The notes under the pieces are model-generated. The model ran no database searches and had not been told where the DNA came from. It saw nothing but the letters and a program-made list of their open reading frames with translations. This document shows, one piece after another, positions 1 to 34,423 of a stretch of DNA of 37,002 nt; within the stretch, counting starts at the first letter, position 1; every line of letters starts with the position of its first letter. Location: positions 1 to 37,002 of the IMG/VR virus record IMGVR_UViG_3300028589_000591. One strand, written 5' to 3'. The position numbers were made by a program, and so were the translations under genes. The stretch comes from a virus.

Positions 1-942
1 ATGGATAAATTACAGACACTTATAACAACTATAAAAGACCACACCTCACCTTTAATAGACAACCTATTCAATCTTTCAACCTGGGAAACAATAAAGTCTT
101 TTTCAAACTCTTCATTCACCACATCATTAGTTGGTGCGTTAGCTGGTGCATTTGCTGGTGCCATGGCTGCACAACGGATAGCTGAGCGTAGCAAACTACG
201 GGATGAGCTCACCAAAGAGATCCGCAACGTAAATGCCGGGATGACAATAGCACTATCGATTGCGAGCTCAGCCATTGGACTGAAGAAACAATACCTACAA
301 CCAATAAAAGAAAAATACGCCACTGACAAAAAAACAATTGAACAGATAATAAAAACCAGAAAAAGCCATCCTGAAAGTTCAGAAACTTATGCATTTTCAG
401 GTGACCTTCGCACGCTATCAACTTCAAAACCACCGATTGATCCGCTGAAAGAAATTGTGTTCACACGACTATCAATAAACAACCGATCGCTAAGTTTAAC
501 ATCTGCCATCGCCGAATCACTTGAACATTTGAACTACTCCATCGCTACCCGAAACGAATTGATCAAGTCATTCAAATCTGGAAATTTCTCTTTTGGCGCG
601 GATATCATCTCTATGTACTTTGGACTTCCTTTCGGTGACGGACACGTAAATCAAGAATTTGGAGACTGCATAGAAGGAATGGCCTCCCACAATGACGAAA
701 TTATTTTCTTTAGCGTTTTACTATGCAAAGACCTGCACCAACATGGATTATATACCGCCACACGATTCGAAAAAAAACTAACATCCACGGCGCCAAACAT
801 TAACGAAGTTTCTTTCGACGAAGCCCGTAGAGAGGGATTAATTCCAGAGAATGAAGAATACCCCACCTGGTTCTCTAGCTTTCAAGAAAAACCGAAAAAA
901 AACGAGAATTTCTGGCGCCGACTATGCAATAAAAATCCTTGA
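1..942 (+). CDS. Hypothetical protein with one membrane segment
   Basis: 313-residue protein of unknown function; I do not recognise the family. A small-residue-rich hydrophobic stretch at about residues 40-57 (LVGALAGAFAGAMAAQ) could be one membrane span. It is followed by a charged, probably helical region and a larger soluble C-terminal part. The ATG is base 1 of the window, so no upstream ribosome site can be seen and the true start may be earlier. The gene is AT-rich compared with the phage core and lies outside the dusA-bounded prophage. It faces the membrane-protein gene at 1077-2024 across a short AT-rich gap. Probably accessory DNA. Confidence 0.6.
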   Translation: MDKLQTLITTIKDHTSPLIDNLFNLSTWETIKSFSNSSFTTSLVGALAGAFAGAMAAQRIAERSKLRDELTKEIRNVNAGMTIALSIASSAIGLKKQYLQPIKEKYATDKKTIEQIIKTRKSHPESSETYAFSGDLRTLSTSKPPIDPLKEIVFTRLSINNRSLSLTSAIAESLEHLNYSIATRNELIKSFKSGNFSFGADIISMYFGLPFGDGHVNQEFGDCIEGMASHNDEIIFFSVLLCKDLHQHGLYTATRFEKKLTSTAPNINEVSFDEARREGLIPENEEYPTWFSSFQEKPKKNENFWRRLCNKNP

Positions 943-1076
943 TCAAAAAAACCAAAGGGGACGAAATTATTTTTCGCGAGAAGTTTCCTACTGAAACTAA
1001 CACTGTATAAAAACAAAGTTAACGAATTATCTAGCCCCCCCCTTTTCTCTTTATATAAATCCGCTAACTTATTTAT

Positions 1077-2024
1077 CTAAAACCTAAAAACCACTCCGAC
1101 AATGCTAACCAACAAGTAAATAACAACAATAACCAACCCAGACAAAACAGAAAGAACCAATAAAGGCTGCTCCTCTATTCTCACCCACTCCCACAACACC
1201 GGCTTGAATCGATCAATGCGCACGCACACATATGCAATGCTGTATGCCGCAATGTACCCCCACAACCATATCGAAGTAAGAAGACTTGTAAAAAAGAATA
1301 CACCTTCAGGAAATGCGTAAACCACCTCGGTAGATAAAGGTACGTCTGTTGTGAAACGCCCCTGCCCATCCGCTTTAAAGTTAGACATATCAAAGTCTTC
1401 TACAACCCTTAGTAACGTGGTCAGATTATTAGGATCTAACCACACACCCAGAGACGTCACTGGAGAAGCTGCGCCATGGTGCAATAAAATAAATTTAGCA
1501 ACCGTCAGCCCTACGTAATACAATACTACAGAACCAACAACATCAAAAATTAGCGCCCAACCAAATGTTTTCTTCCCATCAGACAAAGTGACTCGATATA
1601 TCTTCCGAGTAAGGCTTATCGATAAAAACTCAACGATCAAGATGGTGCAGTAGATAGCTAAAGCAGGCCACCTCAAACTGCTTAACTCAACAATATTCAG
1701 CATCCACTCTCGAAATAAAGAATATTTAAAACTGAACACCAAGATAAATATCCCAGCCCAAACATTTGTTAGTAAAAAACTAACCCAAAGCGCCCTCCAT
1801 GAAAAAATCCTGCTCCCAAAAACCGCATTATTCATATGCAACCATAATGCAATAATTTTTCTCGCCCCAACACGAAAACTTACCTCCATAACCCCAACCA
1901 CTACGCGCTGCAACTTCTCTTTTCTAATAATTTTTTCGAAGGTTTCACACAACTTACACCATGCTAAAAACGCACCGATTGCACACCCAATAGCCAAAAG
2001 AAAACTCTGAATAGCATCAACCAC
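1077..2024 (-). CDS. Multi-pass membrane protein of unknown function
   Basis: 315 residues with roughly six or seven hydrophobic segments: near the N-terminus, in the middle (WVSFLLTNVWAGIFILVFSF, then WPALAIYCTILIVEFL), around VVGSVVLYYVGLTVAKFILL, and two near the C-terminus ending in LVIVVIYLLVSIVGVVF. The start is GTG at 2024, supported by a GGAG about eight bases upstream on the minus strand. No catalytic motif is recognised. It is AT-rich, convergent with the gene at 1-942, and outside the prophage. It could be an island-encoded membrane protein; no function is assigned. Confidence 0.65.
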   Translation of the reverse strand: MVDAIQSFLLAIGCAIGAFLAWCKLCETFEKIIRKEKLQRVVVGVMEVSFRVGARKIIALWLHMNNAVFGSRIFSWRALWVSFLLTNVWAGIFILVFSFKYSLFREWMLNIVELSSLRWPALAIYCTILIVEFLSISLTRKIYRVTLSDGKKTFGWALIFDVVGSVVLYYVGLTVAKFILLHHGAASPVTSLGVWLDPNNLTTLLRVVEDFDMSNFKADGQGRFTTDVPLSTEVVYAFPEGVFFFTSLLTSIWLWGYIAAYSIAYVCVRIDRFKPVLWEWVRIEEQPLLVLSVLSGLVIVVIYLLVSIVGVVFRF

Positions 2025-2180
2025 TGATTACTCTCCGCTCACTCAAGAATATTTTTGAAAATCATGCCGCTATCATTTGGCCATACCCCAGTAAGCGTAG
2101 CAACTTTTCTCAAGGACCGTGGAAAGGGGACTGATTTATTCAAGACACCTATCTACACGCTTTCTCCTTCGCCCATAAAC

Positions 2181-2204
2181 CTCTGAAGATCTCCAACTTC
2201 AGAG
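2181..2204. repeat. Perfect 8-bp inverted repeat
   Basis: CTCTGAAG at 2181-2188 pairs perfectly with CTTCAGAG at 2197-2204 across an 8-base loop. It lies in the gap upstream of the dusA fragment. No T-run follows on either strand, so it is not a classical terminator. An operator or small RNA hairpin is possible. Confidence 0.4.
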
Positions 2205-2276
2205 CCTCGCCCATGCCCCTCCCCACCATTCCTGATAAACTCCCTCGCCTTCGCCCCTGTGATTCAGATCTTCCCA

Positions 2277-2602: not shown

Positions 2603-2896
2603 CTGGGAAAAAGGTAATTTTGGTAATTTTCTTTTTTAGATCCATAAAAACCCAATAAATTCAGTAGGTTAGATAGGTTTACCAAAGGTAATAATAGGGT
2701 AATAGGGAGGTTAGAAAATTACCCTTGGTCGTAGTAATTTCACCTACCTACGAACCCCTTTAAAATCAGGCACTTGGTGAAATATTACCTCCGGCCTTAC
2801 CAAATATTACCTTCAAAGGTAATACTTCAAAGCCACGGTCTATAAGGGCTGCAGCCAATTTTTTGCACCGGCTTACCAAAATTACCTTTTTCCCAG
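2603..2896. repeat. 24-bp inverted repeats enclosing GGTAAT array
   Basis: The 24 bases at 2603-2626 (starting CTGGGAAAAAGG) are the exact reverse complement of 2873-2896. Within the block GGTAAT occurs at 2613, 2622, 2687, 2698 and 2818, and its complement ATTACC at 2718, 2784, 2806 and 2881: nine hexamers in under 300 bp. Several are spaced 11 or 22 bp apart. Two form a tight dyad, ATTACCTT (2806-2813) and AAGGTAAT (2816-2823), with a CA spacer. The block is AT-rich and has no gene. Possible roles are a replication origin with iterons, a multi-site operator, or a small non-autonomous element with terminal repeats. I see no clear target duplication outside the repeats. Confidence 0.75.
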
Positions 2897-2964
2897 CCTC
2901 GAACTGAAATTGGCCAACACAGGTGTCCTGCTATGCTTCCTGCTTTCCAAATGGAGTCGAAAGC

Positions 2965-3180
2965 ATGGCCAGCGAATATTCCCTCACCGTCGTCCTCGAA
3001 AAAATGTACGAAAATCAGCTCGGCCTCGAAGCTGCGTTGATGGAGCTGGTGCTGTTAGTCGAGCAGCAGGGACACGAGAGCGTTGGGGAGAATGCCCGCG
3101 TAGCACTTGGTCGAATTGGGGAGAATGCGGGTTTTATCAACCAGGGCTTGGCACGGTTGAGAAATCTGGAAAAAGACTAG
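2965..3180 (+). CDS. Small conserved-type phage protein, unknown function
   Basis: 71 residues, beginning MASEYSLTVVLEKMYENQ, largely helical, with a repeated GENA motif (HESVGENARVALGRIGENAG). ATG 2965 is chosen over an in-frame ATG at 2923 because GGAG (2953-2956) sits eight bases upstream. I do not know a function; its look is that of small helical proteins carried by Pseudomonas mobile elements. It lies just inside the GGTAAT block and 190 bp before the restriction-modification gene. A long upstream extension of that gene's frame overlaps it but is unlikely to be translated. Confidence 0.65.
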   Translation: MASEYSLTVVLEKMYENQLGLEAALMELVLLVEQQGHESVGENARVALGRIGENAGFINQGLARLRNLEKD

Positions 3181-3198
3181 CTTGTGACAGGCGTCTCA

Positions 3199-3294
3199 AT
3201 GGCTACTCACGACCCGAAGCGGACATTCGACCCGAAGCCAGACACCGACATAAGCAGGTGCTCGGCCCTGCCATACGAGCAAATCAAGCTTTAG
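3199..3294 (+). CDS. Possible 31-aa ORF or truncated gene start
   Basis: ATG at 3199 opens MATHDPKRTFDPKPDTD and stops at 3294. It contains a short direct repeat CGACCCGAAGC. The composition looks coding-like, and it ends just before the AT-rich restriction-modification gene, so it may be the stump of a gene whose 3' part was replaced by the cargo. No family is recognised and there is no strong ribosome site. Confidence 0.25.
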   Translation: MATHDPKRTFDPKPDTDISRCSALPYEQIKL

Positions 3295-3337
3295 AAATGC
3301 CGTGGGCTCGGACGAACTCACACGCCCTAACCATGAT

Positions 3338-3355
3338 AAAATCATGCATGATTTT
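3338..3355. promoter_or_regulatory. 18-bp perfect palindrome at RM gene start
   Basis: AAAATCATG followed by its exact reverse complement CATGATTTT, centred between 3346 and 3347. It lies 13 bp upstream of the preferred start at 3369 and spans the alternative ATG at 3348. Restriction-modification genes are often autoregulated through such sites, so an operator is the natural guess. It could also act as an RNA hairpin over the start region. Confidence 0.5.
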
Positions 3356-3368
3356 TGAGCTGGCGAGC

Positions 3369-5855
3369 ATGCAATTGAGTATTTTGAACGAAGTTGAAAG
3401 TTATCGATCCGAAGCAAACTCTAAACTTAACCAAAAAACTAAACCTTCCTTAGGGCAGTTTTTTACGCCTAAACCTATTGCGCTTTACATGGCCAGTTTG
3501 TTTGAAAACATAAAAGACACTATTAAACTACTTGATCCCGGTGCAGGACCTGGCTCATTAACGGCCGCATTCACTGACGAAGTAGTTAGTAGGAACTGCG
3601 TTACTAGCTTGTCCATCGACGCCTTTGAAATAGACCCCATATTACACCCATTCTTAGATAGAACTCTACAAGCTTGCAAGAAAGTATTGGCTACTAGATC
3701 AGTACCCGCCAATACTTCACTGCAAGGTCTAGACTACATAAACAGCTCTCTACTAAATAGCTTCATGCAAGTAGAGCAAAAGTACACCCATGTATTAATG
3801 AATCCACCGTACAAAAAAATCTCTGCCACAAGCAATCATAGACAGCTGCTTCGCAGCGCAGGGATTGAGTCAGTGAACCTGTATTCGGGATTCGTTTCTC
3901 TGGCCTTGAAGCAACTTCTTCCAGGCGGAGAACTCATTGCTATTATTCCACGATCCTTTTGTAATGGCCCGTACTATCAAGCTTTTCGCGAACTAATAAT
4001 CGAAACCAGCGCCATTAACCATATTCATATTTTTGATAGCCGAAACATGGCTTTTTCTGATGATGAAGTACTTCAAGAAAACATCATCATTCACTTAACA
4101 AAAGGCAAAAGCCAAGGTACCGTAACTATTACCTCAAGCCCATCATCTGACTTCCATCTAGATGAAGAATCCGGCACTATTACAGCTTCCGACATGACAG
4201 TTCGACGTGTCGATTTCAGCAGCATAGTTTACCCTAACGATAAAGAAAAATTCTTCCATATTGCAGCGAACGACAGAGACCTAGCGGTCATCAAAAAACT
4301 GGAAGTTTTTTCTTCAAAACTACAGGATTTGAATGTCAGCGTTTCGACTGGTCCAGTGGTAAGTTTTCGCGCCAAAGAATTCCTGAAGGACAGCAAGGAT
4401 AATAATTCTGTACCATTACTTGGGCCAAGTCATCTGGGGTTACGCGTTAACTGGCCTAAGACAGGAAAAAAACCAAATGCGATAGATATAACGCCCGCTA
4501 CAAAAAAATCACTCTGGGCTAATAGTGGCTCATTTGTATTTGTGCGACGCTTCAGTTCGAAGGAAGAAAAGCGTCGAATTGTCGCGACCTTATATGAAGG
4601 AGAGCTACCGGGTGAACTCATTGGGTTAGATAATGGCCTAAATGTGTTCCACACCGGAAAAATAGGTTTTGACCCTATGATTGCTCGTGGGTTATTTATC
4701 TATTTGAATAGCACTTTACTCGACAAATATTACAGAAACTTCGGCGGCCACACGCAGGTTAATGCGACAGACCTAAAAAACCTGAATTATCCTTCAAAGG
4801 ATTCTCTGCTCCGGTTGGGCGCCTGCGTTGAAGATCGCATTCCGACGCAAATGGAAATAGATAATTTCATTGATGAAGAGATTTTTCGAATGACCGGAGA
4901 ACGAAACAGCCCCATGGACGCCCAACAAAAAATTGATGATGCGCTAAAAATATTGATTTTACTTGGGCTTCCGAAAGCTCAGCATAATGAAAGAACAGCC
5001 CTGACTTTATTAGCTCTTTTGAATTTAGCGCCAGATCAATCTTGGAGCGAATTACAGCGCCCACTCATTGGTGTCACACCAATAATGACTTGGGTTAGGG
5101 AAAAATACGGCAAAGAGTATGCACCGAATACAAGGGAGACATTCCGCCGGCAGACACTACACCAGTTTGTTGATGCCGGCTTATGTCTCTATAACCCAGA
5201 CAAGCCCGATCGGCCAGTTAACTCTCCGAGTGCCTGCTATCAAATTGCACTAGAACTATTTCATGTGCTACTGACTTATGGAACTCCTGATTGGGATTCT
5301 GCGTTAGCAAAATGGTTACAGGCATCTCCTACACTCATCTCTCAGTACGCTATGGGTAGAGAAATGGAGCTAATCCCTCTTATTCTAAATGGGAAAACAC
5401 AAATCAAACTAAGCCCCGGCGCACATAGCCAGCTTATCAGTGATATCGTAACCGAGTTTGGACCTAGATTTGCACCTGGTGCGGAGGTTATCTACTTAGG
5501 CGATACTGGCGCGAAAGAAGATTTTTTCGATAAAGAACGTCTAGCCGAACTAGGCGTTGTCGTTGATCGAAAAGGAAAACTTCCAGACGTCGTCTTATAT
5601 TGGCCTGAGCGTGATTGGCTACTACTTATTGAGTCCGTAACCTCCCACGGCCCAGTTGACGGGAAACGCCATAACGAGCTCGCTAAACTATTTTCTTCCG
5701 CTAAAGCTGGGCTTGTATATGTTAGTGCCTTCCCAGATCGAAAAACCATGGTTAAATATTTGTCAGTCCTGGCTTGGGAAACTGAGGTCTGGGTTGCGGA
5801 TGCACCTACCCATATGATCCACTTCAATGGCGACCGGTTCTTGGGGCCTCATTAA
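3369..5855 (+). CDS. Fused PstI/BsuBI-type methylase-endonuclease
   Basis: About 828 residues with both halves of a type II restriction-modification system. The N-terminal ~515 residues are a gamma-class N6-adenine DNA methyltransferase: LGQFFTP, SAM-binding LLDPGAGPGSLT and catalytic NPPY. The C-terminal ~313 residues match BsuBI/PstI endonucleases: helical start IDDALKILILLGLP, then catalytic-core signatures LPDVVLYW and LLLIESVTSHGPV. The two lengths match typical separate M.PstI- and R.PstI-type proteins (about 500 and 325 residues). An in-frame ATG at 4914 (MDAQQKIDD) lies exactly at the junction, with GGAGA at 4896-4900 upstream, so a free endonuclease could also be made. The start is uncertain: 3369 has GAG nine bases upstream; 3348, 3333 and 3297 are in frame. 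The family suggests CTGCAG-like specificity, but target recognition cannot be read from sequence alone. AT-rich cargo. Confidence 0.9.
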   Translation: MQLSILNEVESYRSEANSKLNQKTKPSLGQFFTPKPIALYMASLFENIKDTIKLLDPGAGPGSLTAAFTDEVVSRNCVTSLSIDAFEIDPILHPFLDRTLQACKKVLATRSVPANTSLQGLDYINSSLLNSFMQVEQKYTHVLMNPPYKKISATSNHRQLLRSAGIESVNLYSGFVSLALKQLLPGGELIAIIPRSFCNGPYYQAFRELIIETSAINHIHIFDSRNMAFSDDEVLQENIIIHLTKGKSQGTVTITSSPSSDFHLDEESGTITASDMTVRRVDFSSIVYPNDKEKFFHIAANDRDLAVIKKLEVFSSKLQDLNVSVSTGPVVSFRAKEFLKDSKDNNSVPLLGPSHLGLRVNWPKTGKKPNAIDITPATKKSLWANSGSFVFVRRFSSKEEKRRIVATLYEGELPGELIGLDNGLNVFHTGKIGFDPMIARGLFIYLNSTLLDKYYRNFGGHTQVNATDLKNLNYPSKDSLLRLGACVEDRIPTQMEIDNFIDEEIFRMTGERNSPMDAQQKIDDALKILILLGLPKAQHNERTALTLLALLNLAPDQSWSELQRPLIGVTPIMTWVREKYGKEYAPNTRETFRRQTLHQFVDAGLCLYNPDKPDRPVNSPSACYQIALELFHVLLTYGTPDWDSALAKWLQASPTLISQYAMGREMELIPLILNGKTQIKLSPGAHSQLISDIVTEFGPRFAPGAEVIYLGDTGAKEDFFDKERLAELGVVVDRKGKLPDVVLYWPERDWLLLIESVTSHGPVDGKRHNELAKLFSSAKAGLVYVSAFPDRKTMVKYLSVLAWETEVWVADAPTHMIHFNGDRFLGPH

Positions 5856-6931: not shown

Positions 6932-8011
6932 ATGTTAAGTGACTTCAAGATAGAAAAATTTAGACACTTCGAAAGTATCGAAATAAATAAAATTCGAAGA
7001 GTCAACCTGTACGTTGGAAAGAACAGCGCAGGCAAGAGTGCCCTATTAGAGGCTCTGTTATTGTTCTTTACACAAATGTCCCTGAAATATCTGCCTAAGA
7101 TCCACTCAAACCGACAAGAGGATTGGGAACAAGCAGCAGACATTCCCGGCCACACCCCTTTGAGACATCTTTTTAAAAACCACCAACTTCCATTACCTGG
7201 TGAACAAGGTTTCACGCTGTCCTCAACTCACGATGACAGATCCTTCTCAGTTAGAATTGAATCAATTAGGGTATCAAGAGAGGGATTAACTACCGGCATG
7301 GAATCTCTCGTACTCCCTCAGACCAGAGAGTACACTCTTCCGTACGAACAGCTTATGCTAATAATGGAGAAGGGAGATCATAAAAAGTTACTATTTGAGC
7401 TTCAAGACTATCCACCAAGACGTCCGAGCTTGATGTATCGCTCGCAAAACTCTGCACCCTTAGTGAATTTCGTATCTACAAGTGGAATTTCCAACAGCGA
7501 ACTAGCAACACTTTGGGACTCAATAAGCCTCACTGAGGCCGAAGGCGAAATTATAAAAGGCCTTCAGCTGATTGAACCGAACGTTGAGGCCGTTGCGTTC
7601 GTTGGTAGATCGTCAAGCAGGACAGCACTTGTAAAACTATCCAACGAGATCGAGCCTGTGACTCTTAAAAGTCTTGGCGACGGGATGAGCAGAATACTGC
7701 AGATAATAGTCTCACTGGTTAACGCTAAAGGTGGCGTACTAATCATCGACGAGTTTGAAAACGGACTACACTGGAGTGTTCAAGCGGACGTCTGGAAGCT
7801 TGTTTTTAAATTATCAGCAATTTTGAATGTTCAGGTTTTCGCGACCACTCACAGTCGAGATTGTATTTACGGATTCGAAGAAGCTTGGGCTACAGAGCAA
7901 AACGCAGGCGGCTTCGCACGACTACAAAAGACAAGCAACTCAGTTAAAATTAGTGAGTATTCCTTCACTATGCTGAGAGACTCCCTAGAAACGGATGTCG
8001 AGGTTAGATGA
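6932..8011 (+). CDS. ABC/RecF-type ATPase of a two-gene defence-like module
   Basis: 359-residue ATPase of the AAA/OLD-like family (SMC/RecF/ABC fold). Residues 1-28 have the usual opening (LSDFKIEKFRHFESIEINKI). Walker A is GKNSAGKS at 29-36, the signature-like SLGDGM at 247-252, Walker B LIIDEFENG with D273/E274, and the H-loop ATTHSRD with H307. The central 90-240 segment is not recognised and could be a sensor. The gene overlaps the next frame and is followed at once by a TOPRIM-like protein, the arrangement of OLD- and PARIS-type anti-phage systems. It is shorter than typical PARIS AriA. AT-rich cargo with its own upstream region; the ribosome site is weak. An anti-phage role is inferred from architecture and location. 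Confidence 0.85.
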   Translation: MLSDFKIEKFRHFESIEINKIRRVNLYVGKNSAGKSALLEALLLFFTQMSLKYLPKIHSNRQEDWEQAADIPGHTPLRHLFKNHQLPLPGEQGFTLSSTHDDRSFSVRIESIRVSREGLTTGMESLVLPQTREYTLPYEQLMLIMEKGDHKKLLFELQDYPPRRPSLMYRSQNSAPLVNFVSTSGISNSELATLWDSISLTEAEGEIIKGLQLIEPNVEAVAFVGRSSSRTALVKLSNEIEPVTLKSLGDGMSRILQIIVSLVNAKGGVLIIDEFENGLHWSVQADVWKLVFKLSAILNVQVFATTHSRDCIYGFEEAWATEQNAGGFARLQKTSNSVKISEYSFTMLRDSLETDVEVR

Positions 8012-8012
8012 T

Positions 8013-8663
8013 ATGAAGGGCATTAGTTTAGATCATACGGGCCCCCGCGTAGTCCTGACCGAAGGGAAAAACGATGCACATTTGATTTTGCAGCTATGTG
8101 TACACTTTAACATACCTAGCACTTTCGGCTTTTATGATTGCAATGGAGACGACAGAGTTTTAAAACGCCTTAACGGCCTACTCATTAGTCCTGAACCTCC
8201 AGAAATAATTGGTGTAGTTATAGATGCTGATGCTCCTGACCTAGTGTCCCGATGGCAATCGGTATCCGACATATTATTGAATCACGGGTATGAGCCGCCA
8301 AATGCACCCGTTGAAACAGGTACAATTTTGCATAAAGAAAATGGTCCTTCGATAGGTGTTTGGCTCATGCCTGACAACTTAACCGACGGAATGCTCGAAG
8401 ATTTCTGCGCGAGACTCGCACCTGAACAGTTCATTCAATTTGCTACAACCTGCGTAAATCAAGCGCTAGACGCTGGAGTTACTACCTTTCGCACGCCCCA
8501 CTTATCAAAAGCAATAGTTCATACATATTTAGCGTGGCAAGATGAGCCTGGGCTACCTTTGGGGCTAGCAGTAAAAGCTAGAGCTCTAAACCCTGAAACT
8601 GAAATTGCCCACAGGTTTCAAAACTTTCTCTTAAACCTATTCCCCAATGTAGCCACAGCTTAA
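8013..8663 (+). CDS. TOPRIM-like (DUF3226-type) partner of ATPase
   Basis: 216 residues. Conserved acidic positions fit a TOPRIM-like fold: E17 in VVLTEGKND, then D71 and D73 in VVIDADAPD, and a later LMPDNLTDGMLEDF typical of DUF3226-type proteins. Such domains bind divalent metal and, in OLD and PARIS-type systems, act as the nuclease effector. ATG 8013 is preferred because GAGG (8000-8003) is nine bases upstream; an in-frame ATG at 7995 would overlap the ATPase by 17 bases. Either way translation is coupled to the ATPase. It ends ten bases before the convergent spike gene. Nuclease activity is inferred. Confidence 0.8.
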   Translation: MKGISLDHTGPRVVLTEGKNDAHLILQLCVHFNIPSTFGFYDCNGDDRVLKRLNGLLISPEPPEIIGVVIDADAPDLVSRWQSVSDILLNHGYEPPNAPVETGTILHKENGPSIGVWLMPDNLTDGMLEDFCARLAPEQFIQFATTCVNQALDAGVTTFRTPHLSKAIVHTYLAWQDEPGLPLGLAVKARALNPETEIAHRFQNFLLNLFPNVATA

Positions 8664-31627: not shown

Positions 31628-34423
31628 ATGAAAGAGCAACTGCGTAGCGACGTGATCGAACGCTTGAAATTCGATTACGGCCTCAAGCACAGGACAAACA
31701 CCGACTACATGCGGGGGGGGACTTGCCCGAAGTGCAGGCAGAAGACGCTTTACACCCGTTTTGATGCTCCGTGGTTAGTGATCTGCGGCAGACCTGAAAA
31801 ATGCGCCCACACGATGCATGTGAAGGAGCTGTACGACGACCTGTTTGAAGACTGGAGCAAACGCGCGCCAGCGACCGATCAACACCCTAACGCGACCGCC
31901 CGCGCCTATCTGGAATTTGCCCGAGGTTTTCGCTTAGAGCTGATCCAGGGATGGTTCACCCAGGAAAGCTATTACTCGGCCGAACACAACGCCGGCAGCG
32001 CTACCGTTCGCTTTGCCCTGGAGAAAGGTGGCTGGTGGGAAAGGTTGATCGACCGCCCACACCGCTTTGGAAAGATGAAAGCGCGGTTCAAATCGAAGGA
32101 CAGCTACCGCGGCGTCTGGTGGTGCCCGCCTTGCGTGGATCTGCTGGAAGCCAAAGAAATCTGGATTGTGGAAGGAATCTTCGATGCGATCGCCTTGGTA
32201 CACAACGACATCGCAGCAGTGTCGGCTATGTCTTCGAACGCGTTCCCGGAGGAATCACTGCGGGCGCTTGCTGGAAACCGCGAAGGAAAGCTACCGAAGC
32301 TGGTGTGGGCCTTGGACAACGAACCAGGTGCACACACCTACACCAAACACTGGGCCAAGCAGGCGCGAGCGCTGGGGTTCGTTTGTGAGGCCGCGCAGAT
32401 CCCTCTCCGTGACGGACGGAAGACCGACTGGAACGACCTGCATCAGCGCTGGGGCTTTATCGACGACGAAAGCGAACGCGCTGACCAAATTGCCGCTGAC
32501 CTGAAACAGGCACGCCACCAGGGCGCGCTGCTGCTGGCAGAGAGCGCCGCCGAGAAAGCGTTGCTGATGTACGACTGGAACAAGCGCGGGGAATTCCACC
32601 TCAGCTTCGGTAGCCGCCTCTACTGGTTCAAATTGGACATGGAGAAATTCAACAGGGCGATGCAGGACATCGAGGACAGCGAAAACCACGACGACCAACT
32701 GCTCAACCAATCCCAACAGCGCGAGAAAGCTTTGCAGCAGTCTGGCAGCGTCGTCGAGATCGCCAACTGCTACCCACAGGCGCTGTACTTTCAACGCAAC
32801 GAAGTTACCGATGAATCCTGGTACTACGTGCGTGTGGACTTCCCTCACGACTCAGAAAGCGTGAAGAACACCTTCACCAGCGGTCAGCTATCAGCCGCCA
32901 GCGAATTCAAAAAACGCCTGCTCGGGATGGCTGCCGGTGCCATGTACACCGGTAGCGGCCAACAGCTCGACAAGTTGATGAAGGATCAACTGTTCGGCAT
33001 CAAAACCGTGTCCACGATTGACTACGTGGGCTACAGCAAGGAATACGGCTGCTACGTTTTTGGGGATCTCGCCATCAAGGATGGCACGATCTACAAAATC
33101 AACAGCGAGGACTATTTCGAGTTTGGAAAACTGCGGCTGAAATCGCTGCAGAAAGGCGTCCCGATCAAGCTGCAGCGTGACGGGAAGGACTTTGACGAGC
33201 AGTGGCTGCAGTTGCTGTGGACATGCTTCGGCGCCCAAGGCCTGGTCGCACTGGTGTTCTTCTTCGGTTCGCTGTTCTGCGAGCAGATCCGGGCGCGCTA
33301 TCAGTCCTTCCCTTTTCTGGAAGCCACCGGCGAGGCCGGGGCCGGCAAAACCACCCTGCTTAACCTGCTGTGGAAACTACTCGGCCGCGAGGGGTACGAA
33401 GGCTTCGACCCGATGAAGTCGACCAAAGCCGGTCGTTCGCGATTGATGGGGCAAGTCGCAGGTATGCCAGTCGTATTTCTCGAAGCCGATCGGCACAGCG
33501 AGGATCGCTCCCACGCCAAAACCTTCGAATGGGACGAGCTAAAGGATTATTACGGCGGCGGCACCTTGGCCACCAAAGGTGTGAAGACTGCCGGCAATGA
33601 AACCTACGAACCACCGTTTCGCGGCACGATCGCCATCAGCCAGAACGCGGCCGTGGTCGCCCATGAGGCGATCATGACCCGGATCGTGAAGCTGCACTTC
33701 ATCCGGCCGACAGTGACGCCGCAAAGCCGCGCTGCAGCGGACAAGCTGAACGCCTTGGACGGCGGCACGCTCAGCCACTTCTTGATTCGGGCCGTCGGTA
33801 AAGAATCGGCCGTCCTCGAGCTTTTCGCCCAGCGCATGCCTGAACACGAATCCAAGCTGCGCCGTCTTCACACCCACTGCTTCGACTGCGGAACCGAGTT
33901 CCCAAGCGAACAAGGTAATTGCCGCAGCTGCGGATCCGACCTGCGCGGATACATCCGTGTGGAGCGGATCAGCAAGAACCACGCGCAGCTGCTTTCGCTG
34001 CTCGATGCGCTGCGCCTGGTTCTGAAACTGGACGAGCCTCAGGTAGCAGCGACCCAGCGGCAGATCGTCCGTATGGCGATCGAGCGTCAAGCCTCAATCA
34101 GCTCCGACCACCCGGCCGTTGCCGAATTCTGGGAGGTCTACGACTACCTCGAATCGCTCAATGATGACCCCTTGGTCGATCACAGCAGCGACCCGAACGT
34201 GATTGCGATCAACCTCAATGAGTTCAGCGAACGAGCTGCCGAACACAAACAGAAGCTGGCCGACGTCGCCACCCTGCGCGACCTGTTGAAAGAGTCCCGC
34301 TCGCACAAGTTTCTGGAGGCAAATAAAGCCGTACACAGCGCAGTCCGCGCAGCGATGAACAGCAGAACATCCCTGGCGCCGGGCCGTCCCACAACGGTCA
34401 AGTGCTGGATCTTCAAAGCGTGA
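31628..34423 (+). CDS. Zinc-finger/TOPRIM primase-helicase
   Basis: 931 residues. N-terminal zinc finger with C33, C36, C53 and C59 (TCPKCRQK...CGRPEKC). TOPRIM primase core near residues 175-250 (IWIVEGIFDAIAL; LVWALDNEPG). Helicase with Walker A GEAGAGKTTLL at about 567-577. A second zinc ribbon at about 751-770 (CFDCGTEF, CRSCGSDL) is unusual. It would unwind and prime phage DNA, replacing the rolling-circle gpA of P2. A single fused protein of this kind is common in Pseudomonas phages. Confidence 0.88.
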   Translation: MKEQLRSDVIERLKFDYGLKHRTNTDYMRGGTCPKCRQKTLYTRFDAPWLVICGRPEKCAHTMHVKELYDDLFEDWSKRAPATDQHPNATARAYLEFARGFRLELIQGWFTQESYYSAEHNAGSATVRFALEKGGWWERLIDRPHRFGKMKARFKSKDSYRGVWWCPPCVDLLEAKEIWIVEGIFDAIALVHNDIAAVSAMSSNAFPEESLRALAGNREGKLPKLVWALDNEPGAHTYTKHWAKQARALGFVCEAAQIPLRDGRKTDWNDLHQRWGFIDDESERADQIAADLKQARHQGALLLAESAAEKALLMYDWNKRGEFHLSFGSRLYWFKLDMEKFNRAMQDIEDSENHDDQLLNQSQQREKALQQSGSVVEIANCYPQALYFQRNEVTDESWYYVRVDFPHDSESVKNTFTSGQLSAASEFKKRLLGMAAGAMYTGSGQQLDKLMKDQLFGIKTVSTIDYVGYSKEYGCYVFGDLAIKDGTIYKINSEDYFEFGKLRLKSLQKGVPIKLQRDGKDFDEQWLQLLWTCFGAQGLVALVFFFGSLFCEQIRARYQSFPFLEATGEAGAGKTTLLNLLWKLLGREGYEGFDPMKSTKAGRSRLMGQVAGMPVVFLEADRHSEDRSHAKTFEWDELKDYYGGGTLATKGVKTAGNETYEPPFRGTIAISQNAAVVAHEAIMTRIVKLHFIRPTVTPQSRAAADKLNALDGGTLSHFLIRAVGKESAVLELFAQRMPEHESKLRRLHTHCFDCGTEFPSEQGNCRSCGSDLRGYIRVERISKNHAQLLSLLDALRLVLKLDEPQVAATQRQIVRMAIERQASISSDHPAVAEFWEVYDYLESLNDDPLVDHSSDPNVIAINLNEFSERAAEHKQKLADVATLRDLLKESRSHKFLEANKAVHSAVRAAMNSRTSLAPGRPTTVKCWIFKA

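What the first reader, a model, noticed from the sequence alone, without database searches (positions are those of the whole stretch)
2603..2896. Perfect 24-bp inverted repeats enclosing nine GGTAAT/ATTACC boxes
Seen directly: exact 24-bp inverted repeats 246 bp apart, nine hexamers in both orientations, spacing of 11 or 22 bp in places, and a tight dyad at 2806-2823. No gene explains it. Options: iteron-type replication origin read by the primase-helicase (as P4 alpha protein reads its own repeats), a multi-site operator for cargo or integration, or a small MITE-like element.
Basis: partly seen in the sequence, partly recalled or inferred. Interest (0 to 1): 0.65.

Follow-up and report, generated by a model that had tools for sequence, protein, structure and literature searches.

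The report
Phage replication origin with swappable boxes
The repeat cluster is very probably the DNA replication start site of a P2-like Pseudomonas prophage, read by the phage's own primase-helicase; relatives keep the same 12-box layout but spell the box differently, so it looks like a large, apparently undescribed set of matched origin-initiator pairs.

Summary
In detail: a perfect 24-bp inverted repeat (2603-2626/2873-2896) and nine GGTAAT/ATTACC hexamers (shuffle mean 0.42, max 4). With three degenerate boxes it is a 12-site array about a dyad at 2749.5.

The array is shared with phiCTX-type phages and with many P2-like phages and proviruses that carry a relative of the 931-aa Toprim primase at 31628-34423 (PHROG 1139). 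Its layout is conserved (sites near 0,9,74,85,96,105 | 171,183,193,205,259,268; IHF-like sites in the spacers), but the box changes: GGTAAT, GGTAAC, TGTCAG, TGTGAT, GGAACA, CCTAAT and others.

The box follows the primase, not packaging or integration. UFJF_PfPro shares the window's terminase (83%) but has a 52% primase and TGTCAG boxes. Sirocco shares 43% terminase but a 63% primase and GGTAAT boxes. Most array phages have another integrase.

The primase is predicted to be a DnaG-like primase fused to a SaPI-Rep/Cch-type initiator helicase (Z 21-24).

Verdict: iteron-type replication origin, a new variant of the P4/SaPI kind, confidence 0.87. attP arms, packaging site and MITE are disfavoured. 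Some distant contigs gave no clear array, and no binding or replication assay was possible.

The parts
2603..2896 (.). Whole array: 12-site iteron-type origin, dyad axis 2749.5
2603..2626 (+). Left arm of the 24-bp inverted repeat: flank GGGAAAAA plus twin sites 2613-2618 and 2622-2627 (GGTAAT)
   Evidence: twin and flank conserved in relatives
2687..2723 (.). Second cluster: 2687+ GGTAAT, 2698+ GGTAAT, 2709+ GGTTAG (degenerate), 2718- ATTACC
   Evidence: degenerate site by position against phiCTX/Sirocco
2724..2783 (.). Central spacer (mean 66% A+T over 24 arrays), supposed melting region (inferred)
2764..2776 (+). IHF-like site AATCAGGCACTTG, one mismatch to WATCAANNNNTTR; perfect at the same offset in many relatives
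2659..2671 (+). Weak IHF-like element (two mismatches) at the offset where relatives have one
2784..2823 (.). Third cluster: 2784- ATTACC, 2796- CTTACC (degenerate), 2806- ATTACC, 2818+ GGTAAT
2873..2896 (-). Right arm of the 24-bp inverted repeat: twin sites 2872- CTTACC (degenerate) and 2881- ATTACC plus flank TTTTTCCCAG
31628..34423 (+). 931-aa primase-helicase, PHROG 1139; proposed initiator that reads the boxes

Best explanation
The array is the replication origin of a P2-like temperate phage that replicates with its own primase-helicase instead of the P2 gpA nickase. SHOWN by computation: 12 sites lie in four clusters (2-4-4-2), nearly mirror-symmetric about 2749.5 (five site pairs mirror, one extra site per half), with IHF-like sites in the spacers; across relatives the layout is kept while the box sequence changes together with the PHROG 1139 protein. 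INFERRED: copies of that protein bind the boxes of each half (six per half, which would fit two facing hexamers), IHF bends the spacers, the A+T-rich centre melts, and the same protein unwinds and primes for the host replisome. The 24-bp inverted repeat is the outermost pair of twin sites, with their flanks, of this dyad.
For: Double dissociation: UFJF_PfPro (terminase 83%, portal 88%, primase 52%) has TGTCAG boxes and phi3 (terminase 70%, primase 30%) GGAACA, whereas Sirocco, pPHPALO552 and G044-G047 (terminase 42-43%, primase 63-73%) have GGTAAT. Layout kept across different boxes: 127 of 177 sites on reference offsets and strand against 61.8 +- 3.8 for random sites, maximum 73. Perfect IHF consensus 15 against 0.65 expected. 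A four-box spacing pattern found arrays in GTDB genomes; of 48 searched whole, 37 have a PHROG 1139 primase on the same contig within about 36 kb and 4 on another contig; the reversed pattern gave none. Two circular plasmid records carry primase plus array. The primase model matches initiators SCCmec Cch (Z 24.2) and SaPIbov1 Rep (Z 21.1) over 322-931 and DnaG over 87-304 (Z 14.5). gpA-type phages P2, 186 and HP1 show no such array.
Against: No binding or replication data. GC skew does not switch at the array. In phiCTX, Smp131 and Halomonas 4908 the array lies within a few hundred bp of cos. About half of the distant contigs gave no clear array, though only parts were read; the clusters of ESSI2 and 2F_1 are weak by count. 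The array is not beside the primase gene in the window as in SaPIs. Related sequences are not independent, so the probabilities are nominal. Seven genomes have the array without a full primase.
Confidence: 0.87

Rival explanations
1. Packaging site: the boxes are terminase binding sites beside the cohesive end.
For: In phiCTX, Sirocco, Smp131 and Halomonas 4908 the array lies about 100-200 bp from cos; all these phages have P2-type terminases; an IHF-like site also occurs in some cos regions (established knowledge, lambda).
Against: The box follows the primase, not the terminase. In phi3 the array is directly 3' of the primase gene, 3 kb from the portal gene; in ESSI2 it is 8 kb from the portal gene. 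The window has no cos-like sequence beyond chance. gpA-type P2 relatives with the same kind of terminase lack it.
Confidence: 0.05
2. Arm-type integrase sites of attP.
For: The array lies about 0.4 kb inside the prophage edge and about 150 bp from the attP core in phiCTX; phage 186 attP has five arm sites and IHF sites.
Against: The window-type integrase occurs in only 6 of 30 array-type contigs, others keep GGTAAT with another integrase. In phi3 the array is separated from the integrase gene by the primase gene. 12 sites over 280 bp on one side of the core is unlike known attP arms.
Confidence: 0.03
3. Operator cluster for a phage regulator, or a MITE-like element.
For: Perfect terminal inverted repeats, no gene inside, cargo genes differ beside it.
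Against: One array per genome in 47 of 48 genomes; the exception, G102, has two arrays and two primases. The outer repeat changes in step with the inner boxes in other phages. No target duplication is seen at the ends. The fixed 12-site layout is far larger than a usual operator.
Confidence: 0.03

Closest known systems
Phage P4 origin (ori/crr) and alpha protein
   Same: One protein binds origin repeats, unwinds and primes (PMC4234260); Toprim-type primase fused to helicase.
   Different: P4 is a satellite; here it is a full-size helper-type phage. The helicase part resembles SaPI Rep/Cch. The 12-site mirror layout with IHF-like spacers is not known to me for P4; P4 sequences were not compared here.
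SaPI/PICI origins with Pri-Rep initiators
   Same: Two sets of iterons around an A+T-rich region, initiator of the same fold; origin words differ between elements (PMC6092414). [quoted passage not shown]
   Different: The SaPI origin lies directly downstream of rep; here only phi3 and a few others have that. SaPI primases are of the AEP type (PMC7581432), here DnaG-like and fused.
SCCmec Cch/Cch2 helicases
   Same: Best fold match of the helicase part is Cch, 5dgk, Z 24.2; Cch2 binds iterons downstream of its gene (PMC7581432).
   Different: No Toprim primase is fused there, only three iterons were found, and Cch2 reads them with its C-terminal domain (PMC7581432).
P2/186 gpA rolling-circle origin
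   Same: Same phage family and head genes.
   Different: P2 and 186 have a nick site inside gene A and no iteron array; the window's phage has the primase instead.

Membership tests
Iteron-type origin of the P4/SaPI kind | Several short directional repeats clustered in a non-coding segment | tested here: met
   12 sites, nine exact
Iteron-type origin of the P4/SaPI kind | Repeat word pairs with a cognate initiator encoded in the same element | tested here: met
   Box follows PHROG 1139 primase, not terminase or integrase; co-occurrence in 41 of 48 genomes
Iteron-type origin of the P4/SaPI kind | Initiator has helicase and origin-binding parts | tested here: met
   Predicted fold only: residues 322-931 match SaPIbov1 Rep and Cch, Z 21-24
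Iteron-type origin of the P4/SaPI kind | Two iteron sets flank an A+T-rich melting region | tested here: met
   Two six-site halves; central spacer 66% A+T, flanks 45-47%; melting itself not tested
Iteron-type origin of the P4/SaPI kind | Initiator binds the repeats and drives replication | not testable with these tools
   Needs EMSA and plasmid assay
SaPI/PICI origin | Origin directly 3' of rep | tested here: not met
   In the window array at 2603-2896, gene at 31628-34423; met in phi3
attP arm sites | Sites follow the integrase type | tested here: not met
   Same box with different integrases
cos/packaging site | Sites follow the terminase; cos nearby | tested here: not met
MITE | Multiple dispersed copies with target duplications | tested here: not met
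P2/186 gpA origin | gpA-type nickase with nick site inside its gene | not tested
   No gpA was seen among the families run, but not all window ORFs were scanned

The most novel reading that the evidence does not exclude
A widespread family of phage replicons keeps a fixed 12-site mirror architecture (two six-site halves with IHF bends) while the recognition word is swapped again and again together with the initiator, possibly through a reading domain in the middle of the protein (about residues 341-500) and not the C-terminal domain. Origin-only islands in several Pseudomonas genomes might then be amplified in trans by a helper phage's primase.
Probability: 0.25. Interest if true: 0.8.

Novelty: new variant of a known kind. 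Interest (0 to 1): 0.62.

Why it matters
The geometry is held while the recognition word changes many times, so it offers a natural series of matched origin-initiator pairs for asking how a self-loading helicase reads DNA and how such pairs become incompatible. It could also supply mutually orthogonal replicons for Pseudomonas and its relatives.

Tried and rejected
GC skew switch at the array: none, so it neither supports nor excludes an origin. Conserved hairpin in the spacers as a priming site: mean z -0.3 to -0.4, not significant. Sequence match of the primase to solved structures: nothing credible. attL in the window: no tRNA and no direct repeat of 14 bp or more between the left part and the right end; the prophage edge was placed at about 2210-2227 by where homology with relatives starts. 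Arrays without primase as satellites: four Pseudomonas cases keep only array, cargo and a baseplate gene and look like prophage remnants. Literature: searches for a phiCTX or Peduoviridae origin or iterons found nothing pertinent, but only open papers are held. The Smp131 authors noted AATTTTACCGG repeats near attP, not this array.

Full report
OBSERVATION. The region holds an exact 24-nt inverted repeat (2603-2626, 2873-2896) and nine GGTAAT/ATTACC hexamers; 5000 dinucleotide shuffles gave a mean of 0.42 and a maximum of 4. By comparison with phiCTX and Sirocco, which have 12 full boxes, three more positions in the window carry degenerate boxes (GGTTAG 2709, CTTACC 2796, CTTACC 2872). Counted from 2613 the sites are + 0, 9, 74, 85, 96; - 105; - 171, 183, 193; + 205; - 259, 268. 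Five pairs mirror about 2749.5 within one base; 105 and 205 are the odd ones. The 24-bp repeat is the outer end of this dyad.

WHERE IT LIES. The window is a virus record of 37,002 bases with P2-type head genes and a contractile tail cluster, in an order inverted relative to phiCTX-type phages. Identity with a close relative (98.9%) starts at 2227, with others at 2210-2216, so the prophage edge is probably near 2210-2230. The array is the first conserved feature inside it. The primase gene (31628-34423) is near the other end of the record, which would make the two neighbours, at least 3 kb apart, on an excised circle.

LINK TO THE PRIMASE. blastn finds the array in phiCTX (between attP and cosR), Sirocco, Dobby and D14A. 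The Citexviruses with full records share the 931-aa primase at about 63%, and other P2-like phages have it at 30-55%; the phiCTX full genome is not held. A blind search for hexamer clusters found one in each full genome tested that has this primase, with a different hexamer in many. In 2F_1 and ESSI2 the cluster is weak by count and is accepted because its layout matches. KM389401, a 12-kb fragment, shows none.

DOUBLE DISSOCIATION. UFJF_PfPro and phi3 share terminase, portal and capsid with the window (64-88%) but have distant primases (52%, 30%) and other boxes (TGTCAG, GGAACA). Sirocco, pPHPALO552 and contigs G044-G047 have distant terminases (42-43%) and no detected sheath homologue, but nearer primases (63-73%) and the same GGTAAT box. 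The window-type integrase is found in only 6 of 30 contigs. 24 of the 30 whole contigs have the array. Most of the other six begin or end on start or stop codons; G007 ends exactly at, and G024 starts at, what appears to be the small gene that flanks the array, so trimming of the record explains those two and is only inferred for the rest.

GEOMETRY. Scans with four more distant primases and fetched contig ends gave further arrays, with boxes CCTAAT, CTGATA, CTAACA, AAAGGT(A), ACATAA, GTTACA/GTAACA and ATCACA. About half of the distant contigs gave no clear array; only part of each was read and degenerate arrays are easily missed. In 21 arrays other than the reference ones 127 of 177 sites fall within 2 bases of a reference offset on the right strand; random sites with the same freedom give 61.8 +- 3.8, maximum 73 in 200 trials. 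The arrays are related by descent, so this states conservation, not independent events. The phi3 type is stretched (315 bp) and fits worst. Flanks like TCGGGAAAA / TTTTCCCGA are also widely kept, and perfect IHF consensus sites occur 15 times in 24 arrays against 0.65 expected, mostly at offset 151 and also near 46 and 228. The window's copy at 151 has one mismatch.

GEOMETRY AS A SEARCH KEY. A pattern of four boxes with their spacing found 58 stretches in the collection of 84,980 genomes. Of 48 genomes searched whole, 37 have a PHROG 1139 primase on the same contig within about 36 kb, 4 have it on another contig and 7 have none of full length; the reversed pattern gave no match. Four of the seven keep only the array, cargo and a baseplate gene related to the window's.

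THE PROTEIN. It matches PHROG 1139 'DNA primase' from end to end and has a Toprim domain. An AlphaFold2 model (pLDDT 87.8, pTM 0.66) matches DnaG at residues 87-304 (Z 14.5), and SCCmec Cch (Z 24.2) and SaPIbov1 Rep (Z 21.1) at 322-931. [quoted passage not shown] PICI origins have two iteron sets around an A+T-rich region, and one drove plasmid replication (PMC6092414); P4 alpha binds its origin repeats, unwinds and primes (PMC4234260). Six sites on each side of a central spacer would fit two facing hexamers; that is inference. Across 27 proteins with known boxes, similarity of residues about 371-490 and 651-680 follows box similarity beyond overall identity (best r 0.41-0.42, reached by none of 500 label permutations; 95% limit over all windows 0.34), while the C-terminal domain does not. 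Permutation does not remove shared ancestry, and SaPI Rep and Cch2 read their origins with the C-terminal domain, so this is only a lead.

ALTERNATIVES. Packaging: closeness to cos in phiCTX, Sirocco, Smp131 and Halomonas 4908 is real, but the box does not follow the terminase, and in phi3 and ESSI2 the array is far from the portal end of the genome where P2 has cos. Integration: the box does not follow the integrase. MITE: single copy. GC skew gives no support. No hairpin is conserved in the spacers.

VERDICT. Replication origin read by the phage's own primase-helicase, confidence about 0.87. The kind (iteron origin with a primase-helicase initiator) is known from P4 and SaPIs. The fixed 12-site mirror layout with changing words in full-size P2-like phages is a new variant as far as the searched literature shows; subscription papers, including the original phiCTX reports, could not be read.

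Noticed in passing
window 2910-5855 (+), probable start about 3369: Fused restriction-modification gene next to the origin: N6 adenine methylase (Eco57I/N6_Mtase) plus BsuBI/PstI endonuclease domains (E 7e-59); cargo that differs between relatives.
   Followed up: partly
window 6932-8663 (+): AAA_15/AAA_21 ATPase followed by a DUF3226 protein: a likely two-gene defence pair carried as cargo; family not identified.
   Followed up: no
L098 (NZ_CP077991 plasmid p3) 31110-41194: A phiCTX-type phage and a second element with DUF927 and Toprim genes sit in one 47.5-kb circular record; the second element has a P2-type capsid gene 62% like the window's, perhaps a phage-satellite cointegrate.
   Followed up: no
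L463, L468, L483, L486 (Pseudomonas genomes G110, G115, G128, G130): Near-complete arrays with varied cargo and one baseplate gene but no primase: the same left-end remnant in four Pseudomonas genomes. Decay or helper-dependent islands.
   Followed up: partly
L472 (Endozoicomonas sp. YOMI1) 4456-4743: 12-box GGTAAT array directly 3' of a primase only 36% identical to the window's: same word with a very distant initiator, against a simple match of word and overall identity.
   Followed up: no
window 1-2210: Two ORFs (1-942 +, 1077-2024 -) without Pfam match lie outside the part shared with relatives; host flank or private insertion.
   Followed up: no
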